A stretch of 26,567 nt of DNA from the IMG/VR virus record IMGVR_UViG_3300029319_000411, positions 1-26,567 of that record, one strand, 5' to 3'. The position numbers and the translations under genes were made by a program. This DNA comes from a virus. This document shows, piece by piece, positions 12,325 through 23,960 of this stretch. How positions within the stretch are numbered: position 1 is the stretch's first letter; the number at the start of each line of letters is the position of its first letter. The notes below the pieces were generated by a model that saw only the letters and a list, made by a program, of their open reading frames with translations, searched no databases and was not told the DNA's origin.

Positions 12325-15300
12325 TTATCCCTCTAAGGTTGCGATTCGTGCGGTTAGTGATTCGATCAAGGCTTGTTGCTCTTGAATGGCTTTCACAAGG
12401 ATTGGTACAAACTTTTCATACTGCAAACCATACTGCTTGCCATCTTCAGACAGCGACACTGTAAGGTTTTTCTTGTCAGATATTGTATGCCCAGCGGCTT
12501 CTTCCAAAGCTAAAACGGACTGTGCTTTGAAGCCCACATCCATCCAATCTTCTTTGTGAGTGCCATCAGGAACTTGGGCGTTAAGGTCATAGTCTTCAGC
12601 ATATTTATCGCCGTACTTACTACGCTTATCCCAGTAATAGGTGACAGGCTCTAAGGCTTTTACGAAGTCCAGTCCAAGGTCTAAATCAACAAAATCTGTT
12701 TTGTCTCGTTGGTCTGATGCTACGGTCAAGGCAACTTGGCAATGGAAGCTGGTGATATTTTCATCACCCAAGCCTATTTTGTTGTCTCCTGCTCCTTGCG
12801 AACCGCCAGGGCTTCCGGTTCTAAGAGCATCTTCTCCCAGAGCTATATTATTTGCCCCGCTCGTAATATCGAATCCAGCCGCCCGACCTACAGCAGTATT
12901 ACCCGTGGCATCAGTGCTATTTACAGATCCCAAAGCACTTGCGCCAACTACGGTATTGTGCTGACCACAAGCTCCATCTAACGCATCCGCTCCTACGACC
13001 GTGTTGCTTCCTACGCCGTTGAAGTTTTTACCAGCGTTATAACCTATGGCGGTGTTAGAGTTGCCAGTCACTAAGGTAGTTAAAGCGTTAAGACCCACAG
13101 CAGTAGAGCCTGTCGCTGTTGTTATTGCATCTCCTGCCAAACTTCCGATCAGGGTGTTGTTGGTTCCCGTAGTGACATTTTGGCCTGCCTTATGTCCCAC
13201 TGCGGTGTTGTGAGAATCTGTGGCCGACGTGAAGTTTTGATTTGTTAGTGCAGACCGTCCTATTGCAGTTGATTTACTGCCTTGCGTATCTGCTGATAAA
13301 GCAAGGTAGCCCAACGCCACGTTGCTATCTGCGTCAGTGAGGGCATCACCTGCAAGAGCGCCCACAATAGTATTTCCAAGTCCCGTAGTGATTGACTTGC
13401 CTGACTCATAGCCTACTGCTGTATTGAATATATCTGCCGCAGAAGTATTGTTTTGATTAAATAACGAATACGAACCAAGCGCTGTAGATTTACTACCTAA
13501 AGTTTCGCCGCTTAAAGCCCCTGTTCCTACTGCGACATTAAAATCAGCGTCAGTAAGTGCGTCTCCTGCTAACCCGCCAAGTAGAGTGTTTTGCTGGCCC
13601 GTAGTCACTGACGTTCCTGCCGCATGACCCACTGCCGTGTTGTAAACATTCGTAGATGAAGTGTTGTTTTGTGCTATAAGTGCATATGTTCCAACTGCAA
13701 CCGAACGATGGCCCAAAGTTTCAGCACTCAGTGCGGATGTCCCAATGGCTACATTAAAATCAGCATCTGTTAGCGCATCACCCGCAAGGCCACCTATCAG
13801 GGTGTTCTGAACTCCGGTAGTTATTAAATAACCCGCTTGATACCCCATCGCAGTGTTGTAAACACTCGTAGATGAAGTGTTGTTTTGAACTGCAAGTGCT
13901 TGATAACCGACAGCAGTCGAATAATTACCTGCCGTTTCATTCGATAGCGCCAAAGCACCCAATGCTGTATTTCTTATCCCGGTCGTAAGTCCGTCTCCCG
14001 TCAGACCACCCACCAAGGTGTTGCGAGTTCCGCTAGTAATTACACCTCCAGCAAAATAACCCACTGCCGTGTTGTAAACATCTGTATCACTTGCATTGGA
14101 CTGTAATGAAAGGGCCGCATAACCCACCGCAACATTTCTATCGCCTTGTATTTCCGCAGAAAGAGCAGAACTTCCCACGGCGACGTTGGTATTGCCTGTA
14201 GTCAATGCGTCACCCGCAAGACTTCCAACTAAGGTATTCTGAGTTCCAGTAGTAACAGACAAACCTGCGTTATATCCTATCGCAACATTGTCTGTGTTTG
14301 TTGCAGATGTAAAATTTTGAGCCGCTAAAGCATTTCGTCCTATTGCGGTGCTTCTACTGCCAAGTGTGTCAGCAGATAAAGCAGATGTTCCTATCGCTAC
14401 GTTAAAATCAGCGTCTGTGAGGGCATCGCCTGCGAGAGCACCAAGAAGGGTGTTGTTAACTCCCGTAGTGACTGCTGTGCCTGCTTTATAACCGACTGCT
14501 ACGTTGTTAGATGCTGTATCTGATGTAAAGTTTTGTGAGGCAAGTGCCGATCGCCCGATTGCTACACTGTATTTTCCTAAAGTATCCGCCGCTAAAGCAC
14601 TGGTTCCCATCGCAGTATTTTCAACACCCTCAGTGAGAGAAGAACCAGAAGCACCCCCAGCTAAAACATTTTTATTGCCTGTCGTGAGTGATGTGCCTGA
14701 TGTCCACCCTACTGCGACGTTAAAAGCATCAGAACCAGCATTTAGAGTTTTAAGAGATTGATAACCAACAGCTACATTATTGCCATGACCATCTTCAGTT
14801 TTTAACGCCTCAAAACCGATGGCTACGTTGTTATCACCCGTAGTCAATGCCGTACCCGCTTCATCACCCACAAGGACGTTGTAATTACCGCCAGATGTGA
14901 TGCTGTCGCCAGCGTTTACGCCTAATCTTACGTTAGATGTTCCTGCTGTCGGAGTGGATATGCCACCGTCTGCGGCGATTTGCAATCGTGAAGAACCGCC
15001 TGTGCTGAAGCCCAGTATGTCACCCCCACCCCAAAACACACCTGTATCGGGGTCAATAGCAGACTGTAGGGTAGGATCAGAAGCAGAACCTCTATTTCCT
15101 ATGTTGATACCAGAGTTGAATGTAGCGATCCCCGCCGCTGACATGTCGAGGGTAAGGGCTGTGACATCACTTCCTGCATCGTTCCCTACGAAGGTTAAAT
15201 CTTTGTTTGACACTGAAGATTTAAGTGAAAAACCTGCACTTACATTTGAAAGTCTTCCAATTTCAGTTCCATCATCAGAAAAAATAAAATCACCACCTCC

Positions 15301-15954
15301 TGCATCGAAAGTGATGTCACCTGCAACGTCTAAAGTGAGATCGCCAGAGGACAAATCAATTTCAGTGCCATCAATCGTGATGTTGTCTACAACTACGCCA
15401 GCGTTGGCAGTAACTACGCCACCAACCGCCAAAGTGCTTGCCATATCGACAGCACCGTCAATATCCACGACATCAAGGTTAGTCGTGCCATCTACGTCTA
15501 AATCTCCAGAAACAAAGAGTGACGGGACAGACAGATCAGTAAACGCATCGATCATCGCACCGCCAGAGCCAGCGCCGTCTGAATAAATGGCTTTGGTTTG
15601 ACCATTTGCAATCGTAACGGTCGAACCTGAGCCCTGCTTGATGATGATGCTTTGAGAACCGCTCGTTGCGTTTTCAATGAACCACAGTTTCGATACGGTA
15701 TTTGGGCCGATGGTAATCGTGCAGGTAGAGTCCAGGGTGCCTGTGTACTTCAAAAAGATCGCTCGACCTGCATCGGCGCTGCCGTCTGCTATCGTGGTGG
15801 TGTGCGTATCGGCATTTGTGGTAATCGCCTCTGTACCGAATCCAAATGAGTCTGCAATTAGCGACAAGTTGGTATTCGTAGTCGTGCCCCAGGTGCCTGA
15901 GCCTTCCCCCGTGGCGAGTTCTGTTAGTCGTAAATCGTTTGTGTAAACTGCCAT
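12325..15954 (-). CDS. Tail fibre with YadA-like head repeats and an S74 intramolecular chaperone, 1209 aa
   Basis: This is the receptor-binding fibre. The N-terminus (1-140, MAVYTNDLRLTELATGEGSG) is probably the virion-attachment part. A Gly/Asp/Thr-rich shaft region (about 140-355) follows. From 360 to about 1060 come many short NTAVGYxA and NNVAIG motifs of the trimeric-autotransporter YadA-head type, organised in a 72-residue higher repeat (429-932). The C-terminus (1075-1209) matches the S74 endosialidase chaperone domain: VASDQRDKTDF with candidate nucleophile Ser1080, DLGLDFVKALEPVTYYWDKR, a GFKAQSVLALEE helix and a closing coiled coil (QEQQALIESLTARIATLEG). Such domains trimerise the fibre and then cut themselves off. 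The start has GAGGT about 10 bases upstream. Confidence 0.9.
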   Translation of the reverse strand: MAVYTNDLRLTELATGEGSGTWGTTTNTNLSLIADSFGFGTEAITTNADTHTTTIADGSADAGRAIFLKYTGTLDSTCTITIGPNTVSKLWFIENATSGSQSIIIKQGSGSTVTIANGQTKAIYSDGAGSGGAMIDAFTDLSVPSLFVSGDLDVDGTTNLDVVDIDGAVDMASTLAVGGVVTANAGVVVDNITIDGTEIDLSSGDLTLDVAGDITFDAGGGDFIFSDDGTEIGRLSNVSAGFSLKSSVSNKDLTFVGNDAGSDVTALTLDMSAAGIATFNSGINIGNRGSASDPTLQSAIDPDTGVFWGGGDILGFSTGGSSRLQIAADGGISTPTAGTSNVRLGVNAGDSITSGGNYNVLVGDEAGTALTTGDNNVAIGFEALKTEDGHGNNVAVGYQSLKTLNAGSDAFNVAVGWTSGTSLTTGNKNVLAGGASGSSLTEGVENTAMGTSALAADTLGKYSVAIGRSALASQNFTSDTASNNVAVGYKAGTAVTTGVNNTLLGALAGDALTDADFNVAIGTSALSADTLGSRSTAIGRNALAAQNFTSATNTDNVAIGYNAGLSVTTGTQNTLVGSLAGDALTTGNTNVAVGSSALSAEIQGDRNVAVGYAALSLQSNASDTDVYNTAVGYFAGGVITSGTRNTLVGGLTGDGLTTGIRNTALGALALSNETAGNYSTAVGYQALAVQNNTSSTSVYNTAMGYQAGYLITTGVQNTLIGGLAGDALTDADFNVAIGTSALSAETLGHRSVAVGTYALIAQNNTSSTNVYNTAVGHAAGTSVTTGQQNTLLGGLAGDALTDADFNVAVGTGALSGETLGSKSTALGSYSLFNQNNTSAADIFNTAVGYESGKSITTGLGNTIVGALAGDALTDADSNVALGYLALSADTQGSKSTAIGRSALTNQNFTSATDSHNTAVGHKAGQNVTTGTNNTLIGSLAGDAITTATGSTAVGLNALTTLVTGNSNTAIGYNAGKNFNGVGSNTVVGADALDGACGQHNTVVGASALGSVNSTDATGNTAVGRAAGFDITSGANNIALGEDALRTGSPGGSQGAGDNKIGLGDENITSFHCQVALTVASDQRDKTDFVDLDLGLDFVKALEPVTYYWDKRSKYGDKYAEDYDLNAQVPDGTHKEDWMDVGFKAQSVLALEEAAGHTISDKKNLTVSLSEDGKQYGLQYEKFVPILVKAIQEQQALIESLTARIATLEG
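13159..14670 (-). repeat. Seven 72-residue (216-base) tandem repeats within the tail fibre
   Basis: Residues 429-932 split into seven consecutive units of exactly 72 residues, followed by a degenerate partial eighth. Each begins with an NTLxGxLAGDALT element, then NVAxGTSALSxETLG, then STAxGxxALxxQN, then NTAVGYxAGxxVTTG. Units 2, 5, 6 and 7 share the DALTDAD segment almost unchanged. Unit length stays fixed while surface positions vary, as expected of a beta-roll under selection for receptor contact and length change by recombination. At DNA level the units are diverged enough that this is a protein repeat rather than a recent tandem expansion. Confidence 0.9.
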
Positions 15955-15969
15955 GCCTTAACCTCGCTG

Positions 15970-16758
15970 CTATGCTGCTGAACGCCCGGCATCTAATTCC
16001 TCATAGTTGGGCGTTTGACTTGTGCTGACTGCGGTGTAATTTGCAGTCTGGCTATCATCAATCGTAGTGTAGTTTGGCGATTGAGAGGTGTCTATCTCAC
16101 CATAAACTAGCATATTTCCTATGTTAGTCGTGATCCCCTCGCCTGTAATCTGAATCAGCGCTTTGGCGACTGTCTCTATATCACCCACAGCACTGGTCAC
16201 TTGTTGCCCACCGAGATCGACCGCGGCTTTGGCATTTATCGTCAGAGATCCGATGCCAGCCGTCGTACCCACACCTGTGGGCGATACTGTAGCTTTTGCA
16301 ACGGTCGTGACCGCCCCGACGCCTGCGGTTGCGCCGACACCCGCTGTAATTTGTGTGATGGCTTTGGCGACGATTTGAATCGCACCTGGGGATGCCGTTG
16401 CGGATTGGCCTGTGGGAACCACGTTGGCTTTTGCAGATATCGTCAGCGCGCCTTGACTTGCCGTCACTCCTTGCCCGGTCACAGAGACATTGGCTGCCGC
16501 GTTTGTGGTAACACTGCCAACACTACTGGTGGCGCCGACACCCGTGGGCGTGACATTCGCTTTTGCGTTGAGTGTGACCGCACCGACACCCGCACTGACC
16601 GCTTGGCCCGTGGGCACGACGTTAGCTTTTGCAACGACCGAAACAGAGCCGACACTCAGCGTCGCGGCAAGACCTGTGGGCTCTACAGGTAAGGGTGTAC
16701 CCCAAGCCGCCTCACCCCAGGTGCCGCGACCCCACCCTGTCAGCGTCTGATCCGACAT
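15970..16758 (-). CDS. Repeat-rich tail-associated protein, 262 aa
   Basis: The N-terminus is MSDQTLTGWGRGTWGEAAWG, a Trp/Gly-rich segment. It is followed by about nine 22-residue repeats of the form VxPTGxxATxxVGxVTxxAKAN (residues 25-220), then three 11-residue repeats of the form SQTPNYxxxDD (225-257). No catalytic residue is seen. The uniform beta-like repeats suggest an elongated virion component. As I remember, proteins with GWGRGTWG openings and TGVxAT repeats are found near fibre genes of marine phages. It starts with a one-base overlap (TGATG) with a 44-codon gene and is followed 15 bases later by the fibre. Function as a fibre or fibre-tip adaptor is inferred from position. Confidence 0.7.
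   Translation of the reverse strand: MSDQTLTGWGRGTWGEAAWGTPLPVEPTGLAATLSVGSVSVVAKANVVPTGQAVSAGVGAVTLNAKANVTPTGVGATSSVGSVTTNAAANVSVTGQGVTASQGALTISAKANVVPTGQSATASPGAIQIVAKAITQITAGVGATAGVGAVTTVAKATVSPTGVGTTAGIGSLTINAKAAVDLGGQQVTSAVGDIETVAKALIQITGEGITTNIGNMLVYGEIDTSQSPNYTTIDDSQTANYTAVSTSQTPNYEELDAGRSAA
15988..16086 (-). repeat. Three 11-residue (33-base) repeats at the C-terminus of the same protein
   Basis: Residues 225-257 read SQSPNYTTIDD, SQTANYTAVST and SQTPNYEELDA, an 11-residue period distinct from the preceding 22-residue one. Confidence 0.8.
16093..16686 (-). repeat. About nine 22-residue (66-base) repeats inside the tail-associated protein
   Basis: Repeat starts at residues 25, 47, 69, 91 and 113 are exactly 22 residues apart; one unit near 135 carries an extra residue and the last two are more degenerate. 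Common elements are PTG near the start, a central VGxVT or VGAVT, and AKAN at the end of each unit. Confidence 0.85.
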
Positions 16759-16924: not shown

Positions 16925-17713
16925 CTACGCCGCCTTTGGCAAACCCTGAAACTTGCGGTTGAGAATGCGCTGGACTTTTGAATGTGTCAGCGGTGGGATG
17001 TCGTGCAAGCTATTGACCTGGGTTGCTATCTTACGTGGACCCAAGCCACGCTTGTGCAGACGGTAGATGGTTTTCAAGACGGCTTGCTCCTCTGGCACCT
17101 CTTCCAAAAGCTTGCGGGTTTTGCTTCCTGTCTTGACCTCCACATGGCGAAACCCGTAAGGCGCCGATCCACCGATCGCATACCCGCGTGACGCCCAGTC
17201 TAGTTTGCCCGCTGAGAAACGGTCTTTGATCGTCGCATGTTCAATCTCTGCGACGGCAGAAAGCACCATCAACATGATCTGATTTGCCATGTGATTCATG
17301 TCAAACTTTGCATCCAAGCCCTTTGTTTTGACTGCGTCAGGGTAAACAATCGGCATTTCACCGAACTGCTCACAGAAAAACAGGGTGATGCCAATCTCTT
17401 GCAGTTGAGGGATAAGCGATAGTAAATCAGAACTTGATCGGCTTAATCGATCGAGCCTGGTACAAACAACGACATCGTGTTCATCAATGATGTCAGTCAT
17501 TTCACGGCTGGCAGGGCGATCTAAAACCGCATGCGTACCACTGATGCCTTCATCAGCAAAAAACTGCGTGACCTCGCGATTATACTTCTCGCGCACAAAC
17601 TCGCTGATCTGTTGCATCTGGGTTTCGAGCGAAATGCCCGACTTGACTTGCTCATCCGTGGACACCCGAATGTAGCCGTAGATGTTGTTGATTTGCTTAT
17701 ACGGCCCGCTCAT
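16925..17713 (-). CDS. Serine recombinase (resolvase/invertase family), 262 aa
   Basis: The N-terminal resolvase domain (10-160) has YIRVSTDEQ with nucleophile Ser18 and Arg16, then DRPASREM (Arg66, Arg70) and TRLDRLSRSSSDLLSL (Arg86, Asp88, Arg89), the active-site set of serine recombinases. A long E-helix-like segment follows (NQIMLMVLSAVAEIEHATI). The C-terminal part (SRGYAIGGSAPYGFR, then LHKRGLGPRKIATQVN) is a short recombinase/helix-turn-helix domain. It is longer than Gin-type invertases (about 190) and much shorter than large serine integrases (over 400). It lies next to tail fibre genes, so inversion or exchange of fibre DNA is possible, but I found no flanking crossover repeats. It overlaps the preceding gene by four bases. 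Confidence 0.88.
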   Translation of the reverse strand: MSGPYKQINNIYGYIRVSTDEQVKSGISLETQMQQISEFVREKYNREVTQFFADEGISGTHAVLDRPASREMTDIIDEHDVVVCTRLDRLSRSSSDLLSLIPQLQEIGITLFFCEQFGEMPIVYPDAVKTKGLDAKFDMNHMANQIMLMVLSAVAEIEHATIKDRFSAGKLDWASRGYAIGGSAPYGFRHVEVKTGSKTRKLLEEVPEEQAVLKTIYRLHKRGLGPRKIATQVNSLHDIPPLTHSKVQRILNRKFQGLPKAA

Positions 17714-19869: not shown

Positions 19870-20078
19870 ATCGCTATTTCGATACATTAGATTTTGTCGC
19901 GGGGCGTATGCCGCACGATCCCTCCTCAACGCGAGGCAAAAAAGTCTTACGCAAGGCACTAACGCGGGAACACGACGCGGGGCCAGAAGCCAACTACATC
20001 ATTCGGGTGTGGAAAGAAGAGCGTGGGTTAGAAAAACGGCCGCCAGCTTCTGGCGATGTTACAAAGCCACATCCATAA
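19866..20078 (+). CDS. Small basic hypothetical protein converging on the polyvalent gene, 70 aa
   Basis: The ATG overlaps the upstream stop by four bases (ATGA) and GGAG sits about 6 bases before it. The protein reads MNRYFDTLDFVAGRMPHDPS and becomes basic (TRGKKVLRKALTREHDAG), ending in a charged Pro-rich tail. Its last 20 bases overlap the 3-prime end of the oppositely transcribed polyvalent protein gene, so one message is antisense to the other there. No family recognised. Confidence 0.65.
   Translation: MNRYFDTLDFVAGRMPHDPSSTRGKKVLRKALTREHDAGPEANYIIRVWKEERGLEKRPPASGDVTKPHP
20031..20055 (-). terminator. Probable rho-independent terminator of the polyvalent protein transcript
   Basis: Reading leftward, the stop at 20061-20059 is followed by CGCCAG-AAG-CTGGCG (perfect 6-base arms, 3-base loop, 20055-20041), then GCCG and five T (20036-20032). 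The stem is strong but the T-run is short and offset by four bases, so termination may be partial. It lies inside the coding end of the convergent rightward gene. Confidence 0.6.
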
Positions 20079-23000
20079 GACTTTTTGCCGCTTCACGTTC
20101 TGCATCGCCAAAAATATCTTCGTAGACATACTTTCCGCCTTGGTACAGCAAGCCAAGCGGTGTGACGTTGTCTGGCCGAGTCACTTCTTCAACAAACTGT
20201 TGACCTAAGGGTGTCACCGCTTGGACAACAGGCTCCAGTAACGAAGCAATACCTGCCTGCGCTCTTTCGCTGAGTTCCTTGCCTTCAGGAGTGAAGGGTT
20301 CAAAATCTAACGCCGCTGCTCTTTCTTCTCTTGCAGTGCGAACGAGTTCTGCCAACTCTTCTGAGCTGATATCCCTTCCCCGTAAACGATCGACTAACCC
20401 TTTGCGATACGCATCGAGGCCCGCTATGCCGCCAGCAATCGGCGCTACTATGGCGGAACCCAAATCTGCCGCAACCTCAAACGGCGCACCTTGGGCTCGC
20501 CGGGTCGCTGCTTGGGCTTCTTGCATCGCACCCAGGCCGACAATACCTGCGGACGCAGGCACTAAGAGTGGAGGCGCGCTTGCGAGTATGTTGGGTGAGT
20601 CTGCTTTTGCTGGATCAAACCTTGCGTTGATTGAGCGTATAAGGTTTTCATTGCCAGGAAAAACAACGGTATGCATACCGCCGGGTGACATCCCAGCAAA
20701 TTTAGACCCTACTGTATTATCTACAACGCCTTTGTAACCCATATCGACCAAAAGGTTCTGCATAATTTGGCCGTTGTTCAGCATTTCACCAGTTTCGACA
20801 TCTTCACTGAAAGTCTTGCGAAGGGTGTCATTGATATCAGTAAAATCTATTTCACCCGCTTCTAAAACGCGGTCTATTACAATATTTGTTGCTTCATCAC
20901 TTGCACCCGCTGATCTCAGCGATTCAGCAAGTTTTGCAATCGGGCTTTCGTAATCAAAATTTTCGAGCTCCTGTGCGTACTCAAAAACAGCATCTTCGTA
21001 ATCATCATCGCTTTGAAAATCACCGCGATCTACTTCATCTCTAGCAGTCTCGTAATATTGTTCTCGATCAATATCAATGACCGTTTTGTTTTTTCCTCCA
21101 ATGACTGCAAATTCTTTGTTGTTGACAAAGACAGGGTAAATAACGCCCTCGTTATCGCCTTTCAGTATCGTTTTCGCCGCTAACTTTGAGGCTGCGCGCA
21201 GCGCATCACGATCTCGATCTTCCTCAAATCTATCAACGAGTTTCTCCACTTTTGCGAACACTTCTGGGTCATTGATTTTTCCCCAAAACTCAGGATTCAA
21301 ATCCCAATCACTTTCTAAACTATTTTCGATGCTTTCGGCGAGTAGCTCAATACGGTTCGTCAAGTCTGGTCCTTCACCCGCATAGTTCCGCGAAGCGTCA
21401 CTCGGCGAAACAGTAAAGTAAGTGCCTTGTCCGAAATCATTATCGGAGTTGAGGCTAGGCACAAACTTTTCTATGTCGAAGGTAGATCCGTGATAAAGAA
21501 TTTGGTCTGTCTGAAAACCCATTTTGTCCGCTTTCAGCATCGCCTCTGCAAACTCTTTCAGAGCACCCGCTTGCACTTCTTGCGGTGTCACCAAACCTGC
21601 CGACAAAAGCGTAAAGGTCAAGGCGCCACCAGTTAGACCCACGATGGAATTTACATCTACACCGCGAGCTTCCATACGCCTTAGAATGTCTTCCGTGATG
21701 GTTCCGCCATACGGCTTCATTTGGAGGGCGCGTATTTCTTGCTGAGTGGGGTTCGCGGGGTCTTTGACTGGTTTTTGAGCTTTACCAAAACGCGCCTCTG
21801 GTAATAAGTCGAACACCGTGGCTGCGCTTGCGTTTTCCAGCACTCCGACCCCACCACCAGGTACGACAAAAGGATATGAGGGATGCGCTGAATCAAAAAT
21901 ATCAATGTCAGCAAAAATGCGCCCGACGTTTTGGATGCCCGCATCTCTTGCGGTAAGTTGTTTTGGATCGGCATTTATCAAGCGTGCCGCACCAATGGAA
22001 AGACCACCTTTTCCGCGAAACTGGACATCCATCATGTTCATGAGTTCTTTGCGTAATACGTCGGGTGCATTTCGCCACGCTTGAACGGCTTCAGGATTGT
22101 CTAGGCCCGGCCAGTTTTTACCAAAACTGACTCCCGCTCCTACCCGTTTTCCGTCTTTGATCGAACCCACTGTTTTGTAATCACGTAACGCTTTATCCAA
22201 AGACTTTTTTGTTGCCTTGGTCATATTCGCGGCGGCGTACCCGAGCATCAATTCACCCGTCGTCGTCGCAAAATCTCCCCCGCTAGGAGCCATGCGCCAC
22301 GGGATGTACAGTGGGTCTTTACCTGATTTCGATTTGAGTTCACGCGCCAACTCTAAAATTTGGCGCGATGGTTGTTCTGCGGACGCCCAGACACCACTTG
22401 GATTGTTAAACATAAAGTCTTGGCCACCAGGTAAATCGATGGGATCTACAAGCTGCACTCGATTGATGCTGGTGACCTGACCACCCGCCCTGGTCCGATC
22501 GGCCATTGAGGTGACAAAGTCCTCGCCCTCCAACTCCGACAGAGCAAGTGGTGGCATTGGTTGAGTATCTAGACTGGGCTGTATTTCCGCTTCAAGATTC
22601 CTCAACATTTCCTGCTCTCTGACGCGAGGATCAAAGCGAGGGTCGAAATCACCTTTCAAAATCAAATCTAAGATGCCACCTTTTGCCATCGATCGGACAC
22701 TACCACCGCTGGCTTTCAGCAGCTCTGGCGAATCAAGATCCTCAAAGTCGGCGTTAACAGAACGTACATTTTTCGGATCGAAGATGACGAGTTCATCGCC
22801 GACCTTGAACCCCGCAAAGCCCGCTTCAGCCATGTCTTCTTTCGCTTTATTTTTTAAGAGATCGCGAGCATCGGGGAAGCTTAACTCACTTGTATCTAGC
22901 TCTTTTTGCGCCTTGTTAAAAAAAACATCGTAGTCCTTAATATCACCGATCTTTCCCCGTACAAACACGGGCAAAATGCGAGCGTTGTCACCAAATAACG

Positions 23001-23550
23001 GACTATCTGGATTGCCTGTTTGGTACGTCGTCCTTATGTACCTCTCCGTATATTTGGGGTCTGGTGATACATAGATGCCCGGTCCCAACTTTCCTCTCTC
23101 TGAGGGCATGAGTTGTGAGAACTCATCTCCCGACTCCAGCTTATCGGTGGCGTGGTAATACACCGTGCCTGTATCGAATCCCGCCTTTTCAGCCTTAGCC
23201 AAACGGTCAGCGGCCTTGATCATGCCGCGTGCAGTGCGAGCTGCACCACCAATCACAGGGATCGCGCCCATGCTCTGTAACGCAGCGGCACCAAAATTAC
23301 CCTCGCGCAAATTTTCAGCCAGGCTAGGAGAGCGTGGCCCCTGCATGACCATTTCCGACATCGATACGCCAGGTGCTGGGAACTCTGGGAACTCGCCAGT
23401 GATGTCAATCAGACCCAAGGGGTCCACAAAAGCACCCAAAATGTTGGCAGTTTGCGCGGGTGTGAGCTCTGGGAAGCGACTTTCACGTTTATCAGCAGCA
23501 GAGCCGCCTTCTTGAAAGCTAAAAATGTCAATGTCGTCGGTTTTTTGCAC
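20059..23550 (-). CDS. Phage polyvalent protein with two ADP-ribosyltransferase-like domains, 1163 aa
   Basis: Two regions share the ART-PolyVal layout. Domain 1 (about 110-275) has KAGFDTGTVYYHATD, GPGIYVSPDPKYTERY, ILPVFVRGKIGD and VIFDPKNVRSVNADF. Domain 2 (about 670-985) has KADKMGFQTDQILYHGST, GQGTYFTVSPSDASRNYAGE, VIYPVFVNNK and HTVVFPGNENLIRSINARFD, with an acidic insert at about 826-930. Such domains transfer ADP-ribose from NAD to targets. The middle (380-590) is an unassigned domain, and the C-terminus (985-1050) has hydrophobic Gly/Ala-rich segments. Polyvalent proteins of phages and plasmids are thought to be injected with DNA to disarm the host. The start is GTG sharing a base with the upstream TAG (TAGTG). 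ART membership is likely; target and activity are unknown. Confidence 0.82.
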   Translation of the reverse strand: MQKTDDIDIFSFQEGGSAADKRESRFPELTPAQTANILGAFVDPLGLIDITGEFPEFPAPGVSMSEMVMQGPRSPSLAENLREGNFGAAALQSMGAIPVIGGAARTARGMIKAADRLAKAEKAGFDTGTVYYHATDKLESGDEFSQLMPSERGKLGPGIYVSPDPKYTERYIRTTYQTGNPDSPLFGDNARILPVFVRGKIGDIKDYDVFFNKAQKELDTSELSFPDARDLLKNKAKEDMAEAGFAGFKVGDELVIFDPKNVRSVNADFEDLDSPELLKASGGSVRSMAKGGILDLILKGDFDPRFDPRVREQEMLRNLEAEIQPSLDTQPMPPLALSELEGEDFVTSMADRTRAGGQVTSINRVQLVDPIDLPGGQDFMFNNPSGVWASAEQPSRQILELARELKSKSGKDPLYIPWRMAPSGGDFATTTGELMLGYAAANMTKATKKSLDKALRDYKTVGSIKDGKRVGAGVSFGKNWPGLDNPEAVQAWRNAPDVLRKELMNMMDVQFRGKGGLSIGAARLINADPKQLTARDAGIQNVGRIFADIDIFDSAHPSYPFVVPGGGVGVLENASAATVFDLLPEARFGKAQKPVKDPANPTQQEIRALQMKPYGGTITEDILRRMEARGVDVNSIVGLTGGALTFTLLSAGLVTPQEVQAGALKEFAEAMLKADKMGFQTDQILYHGSTFDIEKFVPSLNSDNDFGQGTYFTVSPSDASRNYAGEGPDLTNRIELLAESIENSLESDWDLNPEFWGKINDPEVFAKVEKLVDRFEEDRDRDALRAASKLAAKTILKGDNEGVIYPVFVNNKEFAVIGGKNKTVIDIDREQYYETARDEVDRGDFQSDDDYEDAVFEYAQELENFDYESPIAKLAESLRSAGASDEATNIVIDRVLEAGEIDFTDINDTLRKTFSEDVETGEMLNNGQIMQNLLVDMGYKGVVDNTVGSKFAGMSPGGMHTVVFPGNENLIRSINARFDPAKADSPNILASAPPLLVPASAGIVGLGAMQEAQAATRRAQGAPFEVAADLGSAIVAPIAGGIAGLDAYRKGLVDRLRGRDISSEELAELVRTAREERAAALDFEPFTPEGKELSERAQAGIASLLEPVVQAVTPLGQQFVEEVTRPDNVTPLGLLYQGGKYVYEDIFGDAEREAAKSLMDVAL

Positions 23551-23960
23551 TATGCTGCCTCTTTTGGTGCATCAAACGATGATTTCAACAGAAAAAACCA
23601 GTCCTCAAGCGTCAATACCACGGTTCTCGCGTTGTTTTTCGCGATTTTTGCGTTGATGGAGTGCAACGGCACACAAACGCGGATCGGTTTGTTGTTAAAT
23701 TTGTAAATCAACACTGGAATATCGTCACCGCACGCTTCACAGACCTGGTCCCACCAGGCAGAAGCGTACCACCAACCGCTTTTGTACGCTTTACACTCGA
23801 TAGAATAGCCAGGAATCTCAATATCACACAGATTGGCAGCCTGGTATTGGTCGAGATTGCGCTTACACGTAAAACCCAGCGCATGTTCAGCGGCGAATGC
23901 GTTGATTCGCTTCACAATATCCCGCTCGAACGCGGCGCCTTTGGTGCGTGAGTCTGCCAT
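23550..23960 (-). CDS. PD-(D/E)XK nuclease, Holliday-junction-resolvase-like, 136 aa
   Basis: The motif series is clear: KGAAFERDIVKRIN with Glu12, CKRNLDQYQAANLCDIEIPG with Asp46, and YSIECKAYKSGWW with Glu55-x-Lys57. This is the E...D...ExK set of restriction-type and Hjc-type resolvases. A likely role is cutting branched recombination or replication intermediates before packaging. A helix with DQVCEAC and a VLIYKFNNKPIRVCVPL strand pair complete the fold. The ATG at 23960 lacks a visible Shine-Dalgarno and is just downstream of an 8-base inverted repeat, so initiation may be regulated. The gene overlaps the polyvalent protein gene by one base. Confidence 0.8.
   Translation of the reverse strand: MADSRTKGAAFERDIVKRINAFAAEHALGFTCKRNLDQYQAANLCDIEIPGYSIECKAYKSGWWYASAWWDQVCEACGDDIPVLIYKFNNKPIRVCVPLHSINAKIAKNNARTVVLTLEDWFFLLKSSFDAPKEAA

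What the first reader, a model, noticed from the sequence alone, without database searches (positions are those of the whole stretch)
20059..23550. Polyvalent protein carrying two divergent ADP-ribosyltransferase-like domains
The sequence shows two copies of a GF-x-T...YYH-A/G-T...G-x-Y-x-S-P...F-DP...SVNA-F layout about 550 residues apart, with an acidic insert in the second and an unassigned domain between them. ART domains in phage polyvalent proteins are established, but two in one chain, with the first having HAT and the second HGS, suggests one active and one altered copy, or different targets. The protein has no signal peptide and is followed by its own terminator, so it may be produced and packaged separately.
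Basis: partly seen in the sequence, partly recalled or inferred. Interest (0 to 1): 0.72.

Follow-up and report, generated by a model that had tools for sequence, protein, structure and literature searches.

The report
Phage effector with swappable ART cassettes
A large protein of an uncultured marine phage carries two ADP-ribosyltransferase-like enzyme domains, and near-identical sister phages have one of these domains deleted, swapped, or the whole gene replaced, so it looks like a modular weapon that the phages keep re-equipping against their bacterial hosts.

Summary
The gene is real: window 20059-23550, minus strand, 1163 aa. Two ART-PolyVal-like domains (112-280 and 668-989) flank a conserved 363-residue domain that has no Pfam, PHROG or PDB sequence match. 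ART1 folds as an ART in AlphaFold; its best solved match is a chain of the cyanophage A4 pre-ejectosome. ART2 is supported by sequence only, because its model was poor. Two ARTs in one chain is not new: 12 copies are published. The "HAT versus HGS" contrast does not show an altered copy. Both domains keep H and Y, and ART2 belongs to a different, widespread ART-PolyVal subfamily. What is new is the variation. Sister genomes break exactly at module borders: one 96%-identical relative lacks just ART2, one keeps only the N-terminus and ART1 and carries a PBECR5 nuclease instead, and two lose homology at the gene's start codon. In a second phage lineage, 10 of 24 pairs with at least 97% identical central domains carry ART cassettes below 50% identical. 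I read this as a modular, probably virion-delivered effector in a hypervariable slot, diversified by recombination at conserved borders, much as Iyer et al. 2017 speculated. Targets, activity and packaging are untested.

The parts
20059..23550 (-). polyvalent protein gene, 1163 aa, GTG start overlapping the rusA stop
23221..23535 (-). N-terminal constant segment NT (residues 6-110)
   Evidence: profile found in slot proteins of many relatives
22717..23214 (-). ART1 (residues 113-278); H133, Y160, candidate acid E253
   Evidence: PF18760 E 8.9e-4 alone; AlphaFold/Foldseek ART fold
21565..22653 (-). central conserved domain (residues 300-662), virus-only in searches, function unknown; weak YTH/EVE-like fold match
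21589..21642 (-). hydrophobic linker (residues 636-654) followed by TPQEVQAG
   Evidence: Kyte-Doolittle 1.78
20584..21549 (-). ART2 (residues 668-989); H687, Y711, H960, K940
   Evidence: PF18760 E 5.8e-7; ART1-only profile 2.4e-12 and 1.2e-5; relatives in many other phages
20812..21378 (-). acidic insert of ART2 (about residues 725-913)
20533..20586 (-). hydrophobic linker (residues 988-1006) followed by MQEAQA
   Evidence: Kyte-Doolittle 1.72
20062..20553 (-). C-terminal constant domain CT (residues 1000-1163), also fused to unrelated N-termini (L037)
20040..20056 (-). terminator-like hairpin with T-run, not conserved in relatives
20526..21549 (-). stretch (residues 668-1008) absent from the 96%-identical relative L007, replaced by a short unrelated linker in frame
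20034..22706 (-). stretch replaced in relative L015 (PBECR5 nuclease protein instead); borders = end of ART1 and just past the stop codon
23548..23550 (-). start codon; 96.3% homology to L237/L238 (terS-rusA) ends here and a different slot protein follows
23550..23960 (-). RusA-like/PDDEXK gene, constant left flank of the slot

Best explanation
It is a modular effector ('polyvalent') protein of a marine tailed phage, encoded in a hypervariable slot between terS-rusA and a conserved serine-recombinase block. SHOWN: its modules (N-terminus, ART1, central domain, ART2, C-terminal domain) are gained, lost and exchanged between closely related genomes, with breakpoints at module borders. In a second phage lineage the ART in front of the same central domain is swapped wholesale while the central domain stays 97-100% identical. 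SHOWN: ART1 has an ART fold in prediction, and ART2 is a sequence relative of a widespread ART-PolyVal subfamily. INFERRED: the protein travels in the virion and enters the host with the DNA; the ARTs then ADP-ribosylate host molecules early in infection; different cassettes hit different targets or escape host countermeasures; exchange occurs by homologous recombination at the conserved flanks (MDTASRMQRAEAMGFDP...YHGT before, VRSLFAAFDPEY...SNIL-hydrophobic-EEAEAG after).
For: Module breaks in the window lineage: L007 lacks residues 668-1008 (ART2 plus linker) at 94-96% nt identity on both sides. L015 (88-92%) matches to the end of ART1, carries PBECR5 (PF18814, 1.6e-18), and homology resumes at 20034. 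L237/L238 (96.3%) lose homology at 23548, the start codon. Census: slot contents range over NT-ART1, NT-ART1-CORE-CT, NT-ART1-CORE-ART2-ART3-CT, NT-ART1-PBECR5-ART2-CT, and proteins without a Pfam match. Second lineage: L083 and L081 are 99.5% identical over 5905 bp and 1243 bp, broken only at residues 64-194 (the ART body). L075, L077, L078 and L118 have cores at least 98.8% identical in nt but cassettes 11-61% identical. Of 24 distinct pairs with core nt identity >=97%, 10 have cassettes <50%. The L081 cassette recurs in L082 from another metagenome. Virion side: ART1's best PDB match is 9k3a chain B, cyanophage A4 pre-ejectosome (Foldseek 1.1e-3, prob 1.00; VIA Z 9.2, rmsd 4.4, 135 aligned). 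In the other lineage the gene lies between TerL and head genes. ART2 dN/dS is 0.06-0.22 where dS is measurable. Published models: PMC5512222, PMC9503650.
Against: There is no biochemical or virion evidence. The window gene lies next to terS/rusA rather than among head genes. The third catalytic residue of either ART is not settled. The ART2 model is poor (pLDDT 49). In the second lineage the cassette is not the only variable spot (L075/L078/L118 also break upstream). Several of the alternative cassettes (L033, L073, L076) have no Pfam ART match, so 'ART for ART' is inferred there from the H/Y-like motifs and flanks. All data are metagenome contigs.
Confidence: 0.6

Rival explanations
1. Only ART1 is an enzyme. 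ART2 has lost catalysis and works as a binding or positioning domain.
For: In the window lineage ART2 has K940 where 73 of 93 rows of the wider family have D (GYDG motif), and H960 where ART1 has E253. Iyer et al. give H-Y-D as the active site of this clade. ART3 of relatives has F for Y and T at the third position.
Against: H687 and Y711 are kept in every ART2 of the clade and ART2 is under purifying selection. H960 is the rule for the subfamily (81 of 92). Which residue is the catalytic acid is not known for ART2, and ART1 lacks the GYDG Asp as well.
Confidence: 0.25
2. The protein is made in the infected cell and acts there (takeover or superinfection exclusion), rather than arriving in the virion.
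For: The gene is coupled to rusA behind terS, away from the portal and tail genes of the window. There is no direct virion evidence.
Against: ART1 matches a chain of a solved pre-ejectosome. In another lineage and in phage C72C1 the central-domain gene lies between TerL and head/portal genes. Large polyvalent proteins with ARTs are generally held to be packaged (PMC5512222).
Confidence: 0.25
3. The ART-fold domains are structural parts of an ejection apparatus, without enzyme activity.
For: Best fold match is an ejectosome protein. Hydrophobic linkers lie between modules. Some cassette alleles lack the His (L076, YTGT).
Against: Most cassettes keep H and Y, and most N-terminal ones an acid at the third position. 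Wholesale exchange and presence/absence of the domain would be odd for a structural part.
Confidence: 0.15
4. The cassette differences are assembly chimeras.
For: All are metagenome contigs, some short.
Against: Homology to the same backbone resumes on both sides, the frames are open, breakpoints recur at the same motifs in many pairs, and the L081 allele recurs in L082 from another sample.
Confidence: 0.03

Closest known systems
ART-PolyVal (Pfam PF18760), ARTs of polyvalent proteins (Iyer et al. 2017, PMC5512222)
   Same: Sequence match above the family cut-off for the whole protein; H and Y motifs; several ARTs in one chain; phage-encoded; alongside other effector domains (PBECR5 in relatives).
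   Different: ART1 has an acid (E253) at the start of the last core strand instead of the GYDG Asp; ART2 has K there and H960. A conserved partner domain absent from Pfam. Direct evidence of cassette exchange between near-identical genomes, which the paper only raised as a possibility for a kinase locus.
Cyanophage A4 pre-ejectosome protein (PDB 9k3a chain B)
   Same: The ART1 model aligns to chain residues 1418-1600 (Z 9.2), well above the PARPs and toxin ARTs listed.
   Different: No sequence match; the rest of the chain is not related as far as tested; A4's paper was not available here.
Polymorphic toxin systems
   Same: Constant scaffold with exchangeable toxin-like cassettes and conserved joints.
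   Different: The variable part is N-terminal or internal, not C-terminal; no immunity gene was recognised; delivery would be by virion.
T4 Alt (packaged, injected ART)
   Same: Proposed way of working: packaged ART that modifies host proteins at once.
   Different: Alt belongs to the R-S-E clade (PMC5512222); different sequence and architecture.
YTH/EVE modified-base reader domains
   Same: Central domain model aligns to YTH domains (4u8t Z 7.3, 137 of 154 residues) and to MJECL36 (2p5d); the near-invariant W of VWAS falls on the YTH cage Trp motif in hhalign.
   Different: Z below 8; hhalign probability 0.5%, E 0.11; no Pfam hit.

Membership tests
ART-PolyVal (PF18760) | profile match above the curated cut-off | tested here: met
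   41.7 bits against 31.2 for the whole protein; each domain alone stays below it, ART2 30.8 and ART1 20.5
ART-PolyVal (PF18760) | ART fold (split beta-sheet), ART1 | tested here: met
   AlphaFold model; Foldseek/VIA matches are ARTs: 9k3a Z 9.2, tankyrase, ParT, MbcT, Tpt1
ART-PolyVal (PF18760) | ART fold, ART2 | tested here: inconclusive
   model pLDDT 49; profile evidence only
ART-PolyVal (PF18760) | His in strand 1 and Tyr in strand 2 | tested here: met
   H133/Y160 fall in model strands 1 and 2; H687/Y711 conserved in all ART2 of the clade
ART-PolyVal (PF18760) | Asp in strand 5 (H-Y-D) | tested here: inconclusive
   ART1 E253; ART2 H960 and K940; which strand the published D belongs to could not be checked
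ART-PolyVal (PF18760) | NAD-dependent ADP-ribosyl transfer | not testable with these tools
   needs purified protein
phage polyvalent protein | two or more unrelated domains in one large chain, at least one an effector enzyme | tested here: met
   ART + central domain + ART; ART + PBECR5 + ART in L172
phage polyvalent protein | packaged in the virion and injected | not testable with these tools
   only indirect: fold match to an ejectosome chain, head-gene neighbours in another lineage
polymorphic toxin system | constant scaffold with exchangeable toxin cassettes | tested here: met
polymorphic toxin system | variable domain at the C-terminus | tested here: not met
   variable ARTs are N-terminal or internal
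polymorphic toxin system | dedicated immunity gene next to it | not tested
   no neighbour was recognised as an antidote, but none was searched for systematically
YTH/EVE domain (central domain) | sequence-profile match | tested here: not met
   no Pfam hit up to E 10 in 20 members; hhalign 0.5%
YTH/EVE domain (central domain) | YTH/PUA-like fold | tested here: inconclusive
   Z 7.3 at best, within the range of common arrangements

The most novel reading that the evidence does not exclude
The central domain is a viral modified-nucleic-acid reader of the YTH/EVE kind that steers interchangeable, injected ART cassettes. The targets would then be modified nucleic acid or its binding proteins, and the phage population would re-arm one reader with many different transferases.
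Probability: 0.1. Interest if true: 0.85.

Novelty: new variant of a known kind. Interest (0 to 1): 0.6.

Why it matters
ART-bearing polyvalent proteins were predicted from architecture. Here near-isogenic marine phage genomes differ by one ART domain, by one cassette, or by the whole slot protein. That gives ready-made natural experiments: the same phage with and without ART2, or with allele A and allele B, can be compared for host range and for modified host proteins. It also exposes a highly conserved virus-only domain, in at least 266 IMG/VR stretches, that rides with the changeable part and is unknown to Pfam, PHROGs and the PDB by sequence.

Tried and rejected
Pairwise ART1/ART2 BLASTP: not clearly above shuffles; replaced by profiles. 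'ART2 is degenerate because E became H': held for a while, then withdrawn when distant ART2 relatives showed H to be the rule. Central domain as a known family: no Pfam, NCBIfam, PHROG or PDB sequence match; the best PDB fold list is YTH/EVE at Z about 7, not accepted. No central-domain relative was confirmed in 84,980 bacterial and archaeal genomes, and only one distant match in cultured phages (C72C1). A structure of ART2 plus the C-terminus failed (pLDDT 49) and was not searched. The terminator as sign of separate production: not conserved. Paper on the A4 ejectosome not held. Pelagiphage HTVC023P and phage 023Pt_psg01, TerL relatives at 58-63%, show no comparably large annotated gene between terS and TerL. 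Some ART1 rows (L010, L013) compare the wrong domains, since those contigs are cut, and are ignored.
Full report
WHAT IS THERE. The gene runs 23550 to 20059 on the minus strand and codes for 1163 aa from a GTG that overlaps the stop of the upstream rusA-like gene (TAGTG). Profiles divide it into NT (6-110), ART1 (113-278), a central domain (300-662), ART2 (668-989, with an acidic insert at about 725-913) and CT (1000-1163). The whole protein passes the ART-PolyVal cut-off in Pfam. The record is a 26.6 kb virus contig. Its TerL and portal are closest to 023Pt_psg01, HTVC027P, DSL-LC04 and HTVC023P (TerL 57-63%, portal 43-52%).

THE TWO ARTS. ART1 is predicted with an ART fold. H133 and Y160 lie in strands 1 and 2 and E253 at the start of a late strand. 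The best solved match is chain B of the cyanophage A4 pre-ejectosome, residues 1418-1600 (Foldseek E 1.1e-3, probability 1.00; VIA Z 9.2, rmsd 4.4, 135 aligned); PARPs, ParT, MbcT and Tpt1 follow at Z about 6. ART2 could not be modelled well (pLDDT 49). A profile made only from ART1-like domains finds it in two blocks around the insert (2.4e-12, 1.2e-5), and hhalign gives 96.8%. At least 60 other phage contigs encode near-full-length relatives of ART2 including the insert, at 26-37% identity. In that wider set the His (98/105), the Tyr (92/104) and H960 (81/92) are the rule. So ART2 is a regular member of a second ART-PolyVal subfamily. The only sign of an altered site is K940, where most relatives have D (73/93). 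ART2 evolves under purifying selection (dN/dS 0.06-0.22 where dS can be measured).

THE CENTRAL DOMAIN. At least 266 IMG/VR stretches encode it. No bacterial or archaeal genome in the scan does, and one cultured phage has a distant version at 26% (C72C1). Identity to the window among IMG/VR relatives is 44-88%, with near-invariant motifs (MSDRT, GGQxFMFxNP, VWAS, RMAPxGGDF, GLSIGEAR). It is predicted with good confidence (pLDDT mostly 80-95). The PDB list is led by YTH domains and an EVE-like protein at Z about 7, which the tool itself calls middling. Sequence profiles do not support it. Viral structure models match it, all uncharacterised.

CASSETTE EXCHANGE IN THE WINDOW'S LINEAGE. The order terS-rusA-[slot]-...-serine recombinase-g15970-tail spike is kept in many relatives. 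L007 (94-96% nt identity) has ART1, the central domain and CT, but residues 668-1008 are replaced in frame by a short linker. The missing stretch begins at the first residue of ART2 in the profile and ends where CT begins. L015 matches through the end of ART1 (22706), then carries a PBECR5 nuclease (PF18814 1.6e-18), and homology resumes at 20034. L237 and L238 are 96.3% identical through terS and rusA and stop matching at 23548, the start codon; a protein with an EFQSDW motif and no Pfam match follows. Others carry ART1-core-ART3-CT, ART1-core-ART2-ART3-CT or ART1-PBECR5-ART2-CT.

CASSETTE EXCHANGE IN A SECOND LINEAGE. Proteins with ART plus central domain (about 640-710 aa) lie between TerL and virion genes. 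L083 and L081 are 99.5% identical over 5905 and 1243 bp and differ only at residues 64-194, the ART body between the YHGT motif and the VRSLFAAFDP motif. L075, L077, L078 and L118 share cores at >=98.8% nt identity and carry four cassettes that are 11-61% identical. Over all distinct pairs with core nt identity >=97%, 10 of 24 have cassettes below 50% aa identity; at >=90% it is 30 of 49. Breaks recur at residues 27-79 and just before VRSLFAAF. L028 has two ARTs in tandem, and the joint repeats the constant flanks (FDPEYKGSNIL-hydrophobic-EEAEAG-...-YPEEVAQRIASGELPMD), which suggests how arrays grow. The same type of joint (FDP..SPNIL-hydrophobic-EAQA) closes ART2 in the window.

HOW IT PROBABLY WORKS. 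Shown: modularity, exchange, conservation, fold of ART1. Inferred from established families: ADP-ribosylation of host molecules (PMC5512222, PMC9503650), packaging and ejection (ejectosome fold match; head-gene neighbourhood in the second lineage). Inferred: homologous recombination at conserved flanks as the route. Iyer et al. only raised recombinational variability as a possibility for a kinase-bearing locus; the near-isogenic pairs here are direct evidence for ART loci.

LIMITS. Metagenome contigs only; no activity, target, host or virion data. Several alternative cassettes have no Pfam ART match.

Noticed in passing
window 16925-17713: Serine recombinase (PF00239), about 85-92% conserved among relatives whose primase is only about 61% identical, next to g15970 and the tail spike; only weak relatives (<60%) among cultured phages. 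It could act on the neighbouring variable genes.
   Followed up: partly
window 12325-15954: 1209-aa tail spike (phrog_4636) full of NTAVGYxAG/TTGxxNTLxGxxAGDAL-type repeats, with a conserved C-terminal part.
   Followed up: no
L237:2929-4797, L238:3896-5887, L240, L243, L170, L301: Alternative slot proteins with a conserved (V/E)E(F/V)QSDWxQxxR motif and no Pfam match; the same domain follows the central domain in L020/L021/L063.
   Followed up: partly
L076:1051-3153: A cassette allele with YTGT in place of YHGT, that is, without the catalytic-type His, on a core 99.7% identical to that of L074.
   Followed up: partly
window 20533-20586 and 21589-21642; many loci: Hydrophobic segment followed by (E/Q)EA(E/Q)A(G/A) closes most modules; it looks like a membrane segment plus an AxA-like site and may be a processing or membrane signal.
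   Followed up: partly
window 15970-16758: 262-aa protein of repeated TGxGxxxxxGxVxxxAKA units, poorly conserved between relatives (32-49%) although its neighbours are well conserved.
   Followed up: no
L104 (phage C72C1) 9509-10915: The only cultured phage with a distant central domain, with no recognised ART, lying between a TerL-like gene and the portal.
   Followed up: partly
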